Below are positions 2-26,752 of a DNA stretch of 64,000 nucleotides, in pieces. The position numbers and the translations under genes are program-made. The stretch comes from Pycnococcus provasolii. Its lineage: Eukaryota > Chlorophyta > Pseudoscourfieldiophyceae > Pseudoscourfieldiales > Pycnococcaceae. Where the stretch lies: the NCBI GenBank assembly GCA_938743325.2, contig OW568875.1, forward strand, positions 620,001-684,000, written 5' to 3'. Numbering within the stretch: position 1 is the first letter of the stretch; each line of letters begins with the position of its first letter. The notes beneath the pieces are model-generated. The model was not told the DNA's origin. It was given only the letters and a program-made list of their open reading frames with translations, and made no database searches.

Positions 2-1018
2 GTGGGCGACAATGTGGGAGGCAAACGCAGGGGGGCCAAGCAGCACCAAACAAGAGCAATCCCGTCCTCGAAAGTGGGATCAGCTCAAGCACACCGTGGT
101 AATGGTGGTGGTGGTAACCGTACGTCGTCGTCGGCGGCGGCGGCGTCGCAAGGCTCACACCGCTCGTCTGCGGAGGCGCCCATACCTCGTCCAAAAGACT
201 GGAACGCAACCAACTTTCTCAAACAGGCGCAGGAAATGCTCGCGCTGCCCGTGCCGCTCCTGCTCGACCAGGAGGCGATCAAAAGCGACACGCTCATTAG
301 CTGCGGAGGGAGCCACGTATTCAGGTTTCACAGCTACAACGAGCTGGAAAAAATAAGACATCTAGGGGACGTTCTGCCTGAGCACGAACCGTTCATGGCG
401 GGACGGTCGGGGAAGCTCTTCGACAAGTGCGCGGTTGTGGGAAACTCCGGGAGTCTGCTCGAAACGCAGCTCGGGCCTGACATCGACAGCCACGATATCG
501 TGTTTCGCTTCAACGCGGGCATCACTTCTGGATACGAGCAGTTTGTAGGAAGCAAGACGACGTTTCGCCTGCTGAACAATCCGGACGTGACGGTTAAGGA
601 GGCTGGAGAGGTGTACCTGCACACGCTGCGCAACCACGACTTGAAGAACTGGGCCGCGGCGCTGAGCGTGGACGAGGAGCGTCAGAAGAGCTGCTTCGTG
701 TGCGATCCGGAGTTTCTGTGCTACAGCTGGCAGTGGGTGCGTAACCAAGGGCACAAGCCGAGCAGCGGTCTCGTGGGCGTGATCTTGGCGATGAAGGTGT
801 GCGAGAAGGTGAACGTGTACGGATTTCAGTTTCGCAACTACTTCTCCAAGACGAGCAGGCCGCACTACTACGACTGGGAGCGTCCGAAGAAGGGGCGTGA
901 GGGCGTGCATCCGTTCATGCGCGAGGTGGCTTTGTACAGGAATCTTCAGGAGGTTGGCTTGGCAAACTTCGTCGAGAGTGAGTCGGCGGAGAGCTCAGAC
1001 GTACGTCACCGAAGGTGA
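2..1018 (+). CDS. Sialyltransferase-like glycosyltransferase, GT29 family (5' partial)
   Basis: GT29 enzymes transfer sialic acid or a related sugar from CMP-sugar donors in the Golgi lumen. The order of sialylmotifs is visible: motif L near residues 141-187 (CAVVGNSGSLL, then IDSHDIVFRFN), motif S near 253-275 (PSSGLVGVI...VNVYGF), motif III (HYYDW, about 288) and motif VS (HPFMREVALY, about 303, with the conserved His and Glu). The frame is open to the left window edge and begins with GTG rather than ATG, so the true start, and probably the signal-anchor helix expected of a type II Golgi protein, lies outside the window. The visible N terminus is low-complexity and Ser/Gly-rich. Whether the donor is CMP-sialic acid or CMP-Kdo cannot be told from the sequence. 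Confidence 0.88.
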   Translation: MGDNVGGKRRGAKQHQTRAIPSSKVGSAQAHRGNGGGGNRTSSSAAAASQGSHRSSAEAPIPRPKDWNATNFLKQAQEMLALPVPLLLDQEAIKSDTLISCGGSHVFRFHSYNELEKIRHLGDVLPEHEPFMAGRSGKLFDKCAVVGNSGSLLETQLGPDIDSHDIVFRFNAGITSGYEQFVGSKTTFRLLNNPDVTVKEAGEVYLHTLRNHDLKNWAAALSVDEERQKSCFVCDPEFLCYSWQWVRNQGHKPSSGLVGVILAMKVCEKVNVYGFQFRNYFSKTSRPHYYDWERPKKGREGVHPFMREVALYRNLQEVGLANFVESESAESSDVRHRR

Positions 1019-24225: not shown

Positions 24226-25524
24226 ATGGCGCCCATAAAAATAACACTTTCGTTTTTGGACGTCGAGGACCTCGTGCGTGTCATCGACGTCGACTCGCAC
24301 GAAACCACGCTGGAGCTGCTGTACATGGTCGTATCCATGGAGCTGCCTCAGGGCTCCTCCGACGCTTCGCTCGTCATAATGCACGAGGGCAAGCAGCTCC
24401 CTCCCGCGTCTTCGCCGTCAGCATCTCAGGCTTCTCTCGCGTCTTTATCCATCAAGGATGGTGATATGCTACTTATTGGCATGCAGCGTGCCGCCGCCGC
24501 AGCCACCCCCTCCTCTAATCCTCCTCCCGCTGAGAACCCGATGGCTATCAGCGCAGCTGACGGAAGCGCAGTCAACCCGCAGGCGTTCATAAACGCCCTG
24601 AAAAGCGACGTCGCAACCATGGGAAACATTCGTATGCAAAATCCAAACCTGGCGCGCGCCATCGAGGACGGAAATGTCTCGGTACTTCAGCAAATCCTCA
24701 AACAGGCGCACGCCGCGAAGCAGGCGGAGGCGCAGCGCATGCGCGAGCTCGACGCACTCGCCATGGCGGACCCGATGGACCCAGAGGCTCAAAAAAGAAT
24801 CTACGAGGCGATGCAGAAGAAGAACATCGAGGAGAATATGGAGATGGCTATGGAACACACGCCGGAGGCTTTCGGCTCAGTCGTCATGCTGTACGTGAAC
24901 ATGGCCATCAACGGACATCCTCTCACCGCGTTTGTTGACAGCGGCGCGCAGATGACCATCATGAACGAGGCGACGGCAGAGAGGACAGGACTCGCGCGGC
25001 TCATTGACAAGAGGTTCAGCGGCGTTGCGAAGGGCGTTGGCACGAGCAAGATTATTGGACGCGTGCACCAGGCGCCGCTCGTGGTGATGGGCTCCGACGG
25101 CAAGGAGAAGCACATGTCGTGCACCGTCACCGTGCTCGAGTCGCAGGACATGGAATTCTTGTTTGGACTCGACATGCTGAAGCGCTTCCAGTGCAATATT
25201 GATTTGATGCACAATCAGCTGCGCTTTGGCAGCGTGGATGCCGCGTTGCCATTCCTGTCGGAAGGAGAGTTGCCCGCGAATATACGTGGCAGCATGGGCG
25301 AGGAGAAGAGTGCTGCGAGTGGTGGCAGTGGCAGTGGCAGTGCTCCTCCTCCTGCTTCTCCTGCTCCTCCTCCTGCTGCTGCCGGTGGTGGTGGTAATGA
25401 GGAGAAAGTCAAGGCGCTGATGTCTCTTGGATTTCCGAGAGACGTGTGCGAACGCGCTCTTGCGAGCGCCGGCGGAAACCAGGACATGGCCGCGAGCCTT
25501 TTATTTGAAGGTGGTGGTATGTAA
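24226..25524 (+). CDS. DDI1: DDI1-type ubiquitin-shuttle aspartic protease
   Basis: 432 residues with the full DDI1 order. A ubiquitin-like domain (about 1-75) begins MAPIKITLSFLDVEDL. A helical linker follows. The retropepsin-like domain (about 205-350) has the catalytic FVDSGAQMT near residue 238 and the flap-side LFGLDMLKRF near 325, and a UBA domain closes the protein (about 390-430, VKALMSLGFPRDVCERALASAGGN). DDI1 delivers or cleaves polyubiquitinated clients at the proteasome. The active site has DSG, as in most DDI1 proteins. A Gly/Ser/Pro/Ala linker precedes the UBA. This is a conserved host gene, not a transposon. Start ATG at 24226. Confidence 0.95.
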   Translation: MAPIKITLSFLDVEDLVRVIDVDSHETTLELLYMVVSMELPQGSSDASLVIMHEGKQLPPASSPSASQASLASLSIKDGDMLLIGMQRAAAAATPSSNPPPAENPMAISAADGSAVNPQAFINALKSDVATMGNIRMQNPNLARAIEDGNVSVLQQILKQAHAAKQAEAQRMRELDALAMADPMDPEAQKRIYEAMQKKNIEENMEMAMEHTPEAFGSVVMLYVNMAINGHPLTAFVDSGAQMTIMNEATAERTGLARLIDKRFSGVAKGVGTSKIIGRVHQAPLVVMGSDGKEKHMSCTVTVLESQDMEFLFGLDMLKRFQCNIDLMHNQLRFGSVDAALPFLSEGELPANIRGSMGEEKSAASGGSGSGSAPPPASPAPPPAAAGGGGNEEKVKALMSLGFPRDVCERALASAGGNQDMAASLLFEGGGM

Positions 25525-26239
25525 AGAAGAGATGTTCTTACATGATCCATTAATTCCACGCCTCGCTTATGATGCGTCGTCGGCGACGGTTATGTCCGTT
25601 GACAAGCTCTTCAGCTCCCCGTTAGGCAGGCTTCCCGCTTTGGATCCGCTTTCCGCTTTCTGATCAACAAATGCTCGAGCTCCTTGTCGTCATACTCACG
25701 ACTCGTCACGTATTTCCCACGCACGCTCACACTTGAACGCTCGCGCAAAAAAAAAAGGTGTGTTAATAACCGTTAACAAGGTCGGTACCACAATCTGATG
25801 TACTAACCACGCAATTTTATACGACAAGCTCAAGGAGGTCGCAAAAGGGGTGAAGATGTGAAAATTCTTTCACTCTTTGATGAGAATCAAACAGAGCTTG
25901 GGCGGAATCGAACCGCCATCTTCAGAGCATTATTGCCACTAACTCCGAAACTCTAAGTGCCACAATATTGGATTTGCGCACTGCTGTCTTGGTTGAACTC
26001 TTTGCGTGCGGGACTAGCAACCAACATACATCTGCTGCCTTGTCATTTCATTTTGTTTTTGGCGCATCTCTTCTTCTGTTCTGTCTACCTGCCGAACGTG
26101 TTTTCTTTTCGTCTTCGGACGTTCGGGCGTTTGTCACGAGCAGCGAGCGAGCGAGCGAGCAGCAGTCTCTCGCGACAACTTGCCGCCAACTAGTTGCGCT
26201 AGAACAAAAAAATATTTTACAGCTCACTCACTCAAGAAG
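25525..26239. other. Intergenic region housing the permuted tRNA gene
   Basis: About 715 bp between DDI1 and the four-helix protein gene. Besides the tRNA it has a (GAGC)n stretch (about 26140-26160) and nothing else that I recognise. Confidence 0.5.
25788..25927 (-). tRNA. Circularly permuted tRNA-His (GUG)
   Basis: Read on the minus strand, the 3' half comes first (25927-25893), then a 61-nt spacer (25892-25832), then the 5' half (25831-25788). 3' half: C38, anticodon-stem strand TCTGA (25926-25922), variable AGAT, T stem GGCGG/CCGCC with loop TTCGATT (25917-25901), acceptor strand CAAGCTC (25900-25894), T at 73. 5' half: acceptor strand GAGCTTG (25831-25825, 7/7 pairs), D stem GTAT/GTAC, D loop with GTGGTTA, anticodon-stem strand TCAGA (5/5 pairs), then TTGTGG with anticodon GTG (25791-25789). 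The joined loop TTGTGGC is that of eukaryotic tRNA-His. Odd points: a D loop about 7 nt too long and U at the discriminator. Confidence 0.8.
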
Positions 26240-26752
26240 ATGATGTTCAGCAACTTCAACCCCTCCGCCTCCTCCTCCTCGTCACCGTTCACGTCCATCA
26301 CGTCCGTTACCACGCTTCACTTCTTCCTGTACCTGCTCTCGCTCTTGGCGCCGTGGACGTCCGCGTACGGCGCCTTCACGCTTGCGAACCAAACACAGCT
26401 CGCTCTCTCGGCGCTCTCTCTGCTGAACGTTTCGGAGAACTTTAACCTCGTCGTCGCAGACCTTCACCAGCGCGCCTATGCGGTGAGTGCGCTCGTCGAC
26501 ATCGCTTCTCTCTTCTGCGCGGAGAGCCTCGTCTTTCACGCATCGAAGTTCAGCTTGGCGATGGCGGTTCTCAACCTTGCGTCAAAGGTGGCGCTCTTCA
26601 CGACGGTGGCTGGCGACGCGCGAAACAAGGGTGCAGGCATGGTGTTTGGTGGCAGCACGGGCATGGGTGGTGGTGGTGGTGGTGGTGAGACGTACAGCAC
26701 GCTTCACGATGGCCCACCTCCGGAGTACCGGCCACCGCCCGCTGCGCAGTAA
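26240..26752 (+). CDS. Four-helix membrane protein, function unknown
   Basis: 170 residues from the ATG at 26240 (a second ATG follows directly). A Ser-rich N terminus leads into about four hydrophobic segments: HFFLYLLSLLAPWTSAYGAF (about 28-48), QLALSALSLLNV, YAVSALVDIASLFCAESLVF and SLAMAVLNLASKVALF. A Gly-rich tail follows, ending EYRPPPAAQ with Pro-rich motifs that could bind SH3 or WW domains. The layout recalls small MARVEL-like or tetraspan proteins, but I see no diagnostic motif. Composition matches the neighbouring genes, so coding status is likely though function is unknown. Confidence 0.6.
   Translation: MMFSNFNPSASSSSSPFTSITSVTTLHFFLYLLSLLAPWTSAYGAFTLANQTQLALSALSLLNVSENFNLVVADLHQRAYAVSALVDIASLFCAESLVFHASKFSLAMAVLNLASKVALFTTVAGDARNKGAGMVFGGSTGMGGGGGGGETYSTLHDGPPPEYRPPPAAQ

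What the first reader, a model, noticed from the sequence alone, without database searches (positions are those of the whole stretch)
25788..25927. Circularly permuted tRNA-His gene
On the minus strand the T arm and 3' acceptor strand lie upstream of the 5' acceptor strand, D arm and anticodon. Acceptor (GAGCTTG with CAAGCTC, 7/7), anticodon stem (TCAGA with TCTGA, 5/5) and T stem (5/5) pair perfectly only in the permuted order, and the joined anticodon loop is TTGTGGC, as in eukaryotic tRNA-His. Leader bases CAA, just before position 38, can pair with TTG of the anticodon loop, as in bulge-helix-bulge precursors. The D loop is about 7 nt longer than usual and the discriminator appears to be U, both unexpected for tRNA-His. 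Permuted tRNAs are known from Cyanidioschyzon, prasinophytes and a chlorarachniophyte nucleomorph; I cannot tell whether this His case has been described.
Basis: partly seen in the sequence, partly recalled or inferred. Interest (0 to 1): 0.85.

Follow-up and report, generated by a model that had tools for sequence, protein, structure and literature searches.

The report
Rearranged histidine tRNA gene in alga
In what is almost certainly a tiny marine green alga, the one nuclear histidine tRNA gene that could be found is written with its second half before its first, so its RNA probably has to be cut and joined into a circle before it can work.

Summary
On the minus strand, 25927-25788, lie tRNA positions 38-72 (plus U73), 61 intervening bases, then positions 1-37; acceptor, anticodon and T stems pair 7/7, 5/5 and 5/5. 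A covariance model of 37/38-permuted tRNAs, built without this sequence, finds it as the only match in the window (35.2 bits, E=1.5e-8). A T10 terminator follows, and the junction can form a 4/4 bulge-helix-bulge helix. The gene is single copy, and my partial searches found no other nuclear tRNA-His. By contig number and sizes the genome is Pycnococcus provasolii CCAP190/2. It holds five further permuted gene copies: Lys(UUU) x2, Glu(UUC) x2, Gly(UCC). Two splicing-endonuclease-family genes and one RtcB gene are present. The odd U73 without encoded G-1 may fit two other results: no Thg1 match and two trypanosome-type HisRS genes. The long D loop stays unexplained. Verdict: a genuine type II permuted tRNA gene, a known kind; His is absent from the 34 genes tabulated in 2014. 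Expression and circularisation are not shown.

The parts
25894..25927 (-). 3' half of tRNA-His: position 38, anticodon-stem 3' strand, variable bases, T arm, acceptor 3' strand (38-72)
25893..25893 (-). base 73 (discriminator), T
25832..25892 (-). intervening sequence, 61 nt; its last base, at position -1, is T, so no G-1 is encoded
25788..25831 (-). 5' half of tRNA-His: acceptor 5' strand, D arm, anticodon-stem 5' strand, loop 32-37 with anticodon GTG at 25791-25789
25811..25817 (-). about 7 extra D-loop bases (AAATTGC), shown as an insertion against the model
   Evidence: alignment
25930..25933 (-). leader ATAA, pairs with positions 32-35 (25793-25790) in the strict bulge-helix-bulge register
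25935..25943 (-). leader GTTAGTGGC, can form 9 pairs (3 of them G-U) with trailer 25770-25762
   Evidence: fold with the tRNA and junction pairs enforced
25747..25756 (-). T10 run, probable RNA polymerase III terminator, 31 nt after the junction; the only T run of 10 or more on this strand of the window
25963..25969 (-). AATATTG, 35 nt before position 38, at the same distance as in the permuted tRNA-Glu gene; possible upstream promoter element (weak)

Best explanation
This is a nuclear, circularly permuted tRNA-His(GUG) gene with its junction at 37/38 (type II). Shown from sequence: order of the parts, pairings, covariance-model match, terminator, single copy, other permuted genes in the same genome. 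Inferred: polymerase III transcribes one linear RNA from upstream of 25927 to the T10 run; the ends fold into a bulge-helix-bulge at the anticodon loop; the tRNA splicing endonuclease cuts at 37 and before 38; a ligase, perhaps RtcB, closes a circle of about 140 nt; RNase P and tRNase Z remove the 61-nt intervening piece; CCA is added. Probably it supplies the cell's cytosolic tRNA-His. It carries U73 and no encoded G-1, and is likely charged without G-1 by a trypanosome-type HisRS.
For: Covariance model, trained on 18 typed human tRNAs and not on this sequence: 35.2 bits, E=1.5e-8, the only window match. 17/17 Watson-Crick pairs in acceptor, anticodon and T stems. Strict bulge-helix-bulge helix 4/4 in His, and also in Lys and Glu. 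T10, T10, T9, T10 runs 31, 17, 21 and 16 nt after the junctions of His, Lys, Glu and Gly. Other permuted genes: Lys 61.3 bits (2 copies), Gly 53.5, Glu 48.4 (2 copies). No second copy; the tRNA-His D-arm/anticodon pattern matches exactly only here. Two PF01974 endonuclease-family genes, one RtcB gene. Identity system: Thg1 families give 0 candidates; both HisRS genes score 396-420 bits against 3hrk/3hri and 131-133 bits against cytoplasmic 4g84.
Against: No RNA evidence. The free precursor's minimum-energy fold (-49.4 kcal/mol) is not the permuted cloverleaf (-40.7, or -38.1 with the junction helix); part of the 3' half pairs with the intervening sequence instead. The joined tRNA prefers a different D-arm pairing (-24.3 against -21.9). 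ARAGORN does not call the joined sequence. D loop about 7 nt too long, U73 unexpected. Gly fails the strict junction helix (1/4). The search for a standard tRNA-His is incomplete: 63 of 587 tRNA candidates scored. Thg1 absence rests on two profile searches whose control rang in 1 of 14 genomes, in an assembly with 12% of BUSCO genes missing.
Confidence: 0.9

Rival explanations
1. It is a decayed copy: a permuted tRNA-His pseudogene, with a working tRNA-His gene elsewhere that the searches missed (for example one with introns in the D or T arm).
For: Long D loop and U73; only 63 of 587 tRNA candidates were scored; ARAGORN fails on the joined sequence; only 30 of the 122 pattern sites were examined as loci.
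Against: 17/17 Watson-Crick pairs, intact B-box and His anticodon loop, T10 terminator at the expected place, no second copy, and intact sister genes of the same design.
Confidence: 0.08
2. Chance resemblance or two unrelated tRNA-derived fragments that happen to pair.
For: A loose pairing-only scan gives 19 sites in 1200 shuffled windows.
Against: Covariance-model E=1.5e-8; 0 sites in 40 shuffles with the strict scan; terminator and junction helix; five more gene copies in the genome.
Confidence: 0.01
3. The two halves belong to separate transcripts that are trans-spliced (a split tRNA) rather than one circularising transcript.
For: No transcript data here; trans-splicing would use the same junction helix.
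Against: Halves adjacent on one strand, 61 nt apart, within the 1-74 nt range of known permuted genes; the only T run of 10 or more on the strand lies after the 5' half.
Confidence: 0.02

Closest known systems
Type II (37/38) permuted tRNA genes of Ostreococcus, Micromonas and the Bigelowiella nucleomorph (Maruyama 2010, as tabulated in PMC3978253; section 4 part 1 read)
   Same: Junction 37/38, 3' half first, single transcript expected, junction helix at the anticodon loop, green-algal nuclear gene
   Different: None of the 34 tabulated genes is His (or Glu). Here the spacer is 61 nt, the D loop is long and base 73 is U. Pycnococcus is a different prasinophyte lineage (from my own knowledge).
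[quoted passage not shown]
   Same: Several isotypes permuted in one nucleus, T run after the 5' half, splicing endonuclease expected to cut
   Different: C. merolae junctions lie at several places of the cloverleaf; the four isotypes found here all join at 37/38. C. merolae was reported to lack TFC1/TFC3; here a B-block TFIIIC match exists.
Permuted tRNA genes of Auxenochlorella (PMC12636532; passages seen, figure S1 not seen)
   Same: Green alga, permuted nuclear tRNA genes missed by standard tRNA searches
   Different: Its isotypes could not be seen, so a permuted tRNA-His there cannot be excluded
tRNA-His without G-1 in Trypanosoma brucei and Acanthamoeba (passages of PMC6471195 and PMC9976931)
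   Same: No Thg1 found; HisRS closest to the trypanosome enzymes among solved structures
   Different: Gene not permuted there, as far as I recall; G-1 independence is untested here

Membership tests
Circularly permuted tRNA gene, type II | 3' half lies upstream of 5' half on one strand, with cloverleaf stems pairing across | tested here: met
Circularly permuted tRNA gene, type II | Junction between positions 37 and 38 | tested here: met
Circularly permuted tRNA gene, type II | Junction flanks can form a bulge-helix-bulge (hBH form) | tested here: met
   4/4 central pairs; chance 0.07 on its own; not part of the free minimum-energy fold
Circularly permuted tRNA gene, type II | One transcription unit: T run after the 5' half, none between the halves | tested here: met
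   T10 at 25756-25747; longest T run in the intervening sequence is 4 (read)
Circularly permuted tRNA gene, type II | Circular RNA intermediate and charged mature tRNA | not testable with these tools
   needs RNA
Eukaryotic tRNA-His (canonical) | GUG anticodon and eukaryotic D-arm/anticodon-loop sequence | tested here: met
   exact pattern match only here
Eukaryotic tRNA-His (canonical) | G-1 added by Thg1 opposite A73 | tested here: not met
   U73; 0 Thg1 candidates, with a weak control
G-1-independent tRNA-His/HisRS pair | HisRS that charges tRNA-His lacking G-1 | tested here: inconclusive
   Both HisRS genes are closest to 3hrk/3hri; activity not testable

The most novel reading that the evidence does not exclude
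Pycnococcus provasolii makes its only cytosolic tRNA-His from a permuted gene through a circular RNA, as part of a wide scrambling of nuclear tRNA genes, and has given up the near-universal G-1 mark: Thg1 is lost, the tRNA has U73, and a trypanosome-type HisRS has taken over in the cytosol. This would be a further eukaryotic lineage without G-1, and the first case in which an essential single-copy identity-altered tRNA depends on permuted-gene processing.
Probability: 0.45. Interest if true: 0.72.

Novelty: new member of a known kind. Interest (0 to 1): 0.57.

Why it matters
Permuted tRNA genes are rare, and standard gene finders miss them; here ARAGORN and Rfam at its gathering score saw nothing in the window. 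A permuted gene as the apparent sole source of tRNA-His would make the circular pathway essential for the cell. It also adds an isotype not among the 34 tabulated in 2014, in a lineage for which I found no report, and points to an alga in which tRNA-His identity may have changed.

Tried and rejected
Standard gene finders: ARAGORN on the window, 0 genes; Rfam at gathering threshold, 0; ARAGORN on the joined halves with four choices of base 73, nothing.

A 7-nt intron in the D loop: removing seven bases would restore a human-like D arm, but known introns listed in the review are 11 nt or longer and no junction helix fits so short a piece; rejected as less likely than a long D loop. This was by inspection; no call tests it.

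Two further sites with permuted-model scores, L017 (32.4 bits, Ser-like D arm, G73) and L036 (26.7 bits), were not counted: their anticodon arms do not resolve. L088/L089 matched the model weakly (E about 0.0005-0.001) but have standard order with a long intron.

Upstream promoter: AATATTG shared in register by His and Glu; chance 0.005 per pair with 21 pairs compared, so weak. Tau95 search told nothing, as its control rang nowhere.

Papers: Maruyama 2010 and the two Rao papers are not held; supplementary figures could not be read.

Full report
What is there. The minus strand at 25927-25788 reads position 38, the anticodon-stem 3' strand, a 4-base variable region, the T arm and the acceptor 3' strand; then U73 and 61 further bases; then the acceptor 5' strand, D arm, anticodon-stem 5' strand and loop bases 32-37 TTGTGG. 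The 17 pairs of acceptor, anticodon and T stems are all Watson-Crick; the D stem is GTAT/GTAC with one G-U. Joined, the anticodon loop is TTGTGGC, anticodon GTG. From memory, the D arm equals the human tRNA-His D arm apart from about seven extra bases.

Is it more than chance? ARAGORN and Rfam find nothing, as expected for a permuted gene. I built a covariance model from 18 typed human tRNAs, permuted at 37/38 with a neutral spacer. It finds this place as its only match in the window up to E=10: 35.2 bits, E=1.5e-8. Scaled to the 32.3-Mb genome that is about 1e-5, by my own arithmetic; the calibration is rough. A pairing-only scan finds one site in the window. Its strict form found none in 40 shuffles; a looser form found 19 in 1200. 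Pairing alone is therefore good but not decisive; sequence and pairing together are.

Where it is. The genome has 46 contigs and 32.33 Mb; two contigs of 24,277 and 80,243 bases encode organelle genes (gene names by eye). The abstract and passages of PMC11130579 give 44 chromosomes, 32.2 Mb, a 24.3-kb mitochondrial and an 80.2-kb plastid genome for Pycnococcus provasolii CCAP190/2. I take the genome to be that one; no sequence comparison was made. The gene lies between a Ddi1-like gene (24226-25524, plus strand) and an ORF without Pfam match at 26180-26752.

Junction and ends. In the strict register, loop positions 32-35 TTGT pair with leader ATAA, 4/4 (chance 0.07 alone). Lys and Glu also give 4/4; Gly gives 1/4, L017 2/4 and L036 2/4. 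T runs of 10, 10, 9 and 10 lie 31, 17, 21 and 16 nt after the junctions of His, Lys, Glu and Gly. On the minus strand of the window there is one T run of 10 or more, and it is this one. With the tRNA and junction pairs enforced, leader and trailer can form a further 9-pair helix, but the free minimum-energy fold is different and 9-11 kcal/mol lower. The joined tRNA folds into the expected acceptor, anticodon and T stems, with a different D-arm pairing by a small margin.

Other genes of this kind. A B-box pattern gave 79 matches in the genome against 65 for the reversed control; 66 are nuclear, and I looked at the sequence around all 66 (loci L017-L046, L078-L109 and the window). The model was run on 61 loci from this set, leaving out the two Trp loci. 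It found Lys(UUU) twice (61.3 bits), Gly(UCC) (53.5), Glu(UUC) twice (48.4) and the window gene again (35.2). L017 (32.4) and L036 (26.7) scored too but do not resolve, and L088/L089 matched weakly although they have standard order. So at least six permuted gene copies of four isotypes exist, counting His. This is a lower bound, since other B-box forms were not searched. Of 27 tRNA matches by the Rfam model, 24 are organellar and 3 nuclear (Tyr, Trp, Trp, all with introns); only 63 of 587 candidates were scored, so this is no inventory.

Is there another tRNA-His? The locus itself is single copy. A D-arm/anticodon pattern matches exactly only here; with up to two mismatches there are 122 sites against 199 for the control, and the first 30 loci held no tRNA that ARAGORN could call, which includes the window gene itself and so is a weak test. 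The mitochondrial contig has its own tRNA-His. I conclude that no other nuclear gene was found, not that none exists.

Machinery. Two PF01974 splicing-endonuclease-family genes, one RtcB, one B-block TFIIIC match. Tau95 was uninformative.

Identity of the tRNA. Base 73 is U and the base before G1 is T. Eukaryotic tRNA-His normally gets G-1 from Thg1, opposite A73 (passages of PMC6471195 and PMC9976931). Both Thg1 families give no candidate here, though the control rang in only 1 of 14 genomes and the assembly misses 12% of BUSCO genes. The genome has two PF13393 HisRS matches. Both are far closer to 3hrk and 3hri (396-420 bits) than to cytoplasmic HisRS 4g84 (131-133 bits); that 3hrk and 3hri are trypanosome enzymes and 4g84 human is recalled. 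T. brucei and Acanthamoeba charge tRNA-His without G-1. The pieces fit a G-1-independent system, but U73 also occurs in the two Trp genes here, so U73 by itself is weak evidence.

Comparison. The review PMC3978253 (section 4 part 1, sections 5 and 8 read) tabulates 34 permuted genes; none is His or Glu, and spacers range from 1 to 74 nt. Passages of PMC4494063 add Ser genes in another nucleomorph. Auxenochlorella has permuted tRNA genes too (passages), isotypes not seen. A search for Pycnococcus with 'permuted' gave one paper, on euglenophyte plastid genomes by its title; searches listed no report of a permuted tRNA-His by title or abstract. That is the basis of the novelty claim, within an open-access library.

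Verdict. A real permuted tRNA-His gene, type II; new in isotype and probably in lineage, not in kind.

Noticed in passing
G000 C13:180581 and C13:186733 (L079, L080); C28:201887 and C28:206711 (L095, L096); C41:247246 (L109): Five further permuted tRNA gene copies, Lys(UUU) x2, Glu(UUC) x2 and Gly(UCC); the two Lys and the two Glu copies showed identical leaders and trailers in the stretches printed.
   Followed up: partly
L017 1487-1609 (+): Probable permuted class II tRNA with a Ser-like D arm, 7-pair acceptor and G73; the anticodon arm does not resolve, so it may hold a further intron or another junction.
   Followed up: partly
L088, L089 (C23): Two standard-order tRNA genes with a long intron, acceptor 7/7, directly followed by a T run; anticodon unresolved.
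   Followed up: partly
L010, L020 (C3): The nuclear tRNA-Trp genes read U73, where eukaryotic tRNA-Trp is expected to have A73 (table in PMC9976931). With U73 in His this raises the question of 3'-end editing.
   Followed up: no
L079 D arm; window 25811-25817: The permuted Lys gene also has a few extra D-loop bases before G18G19, as the His gene has about seven.
   Followed up: no
G000, whole genome: No match to either Thg1 family, and both HisRS genes are of trypanosome type.
   Followed up: partly
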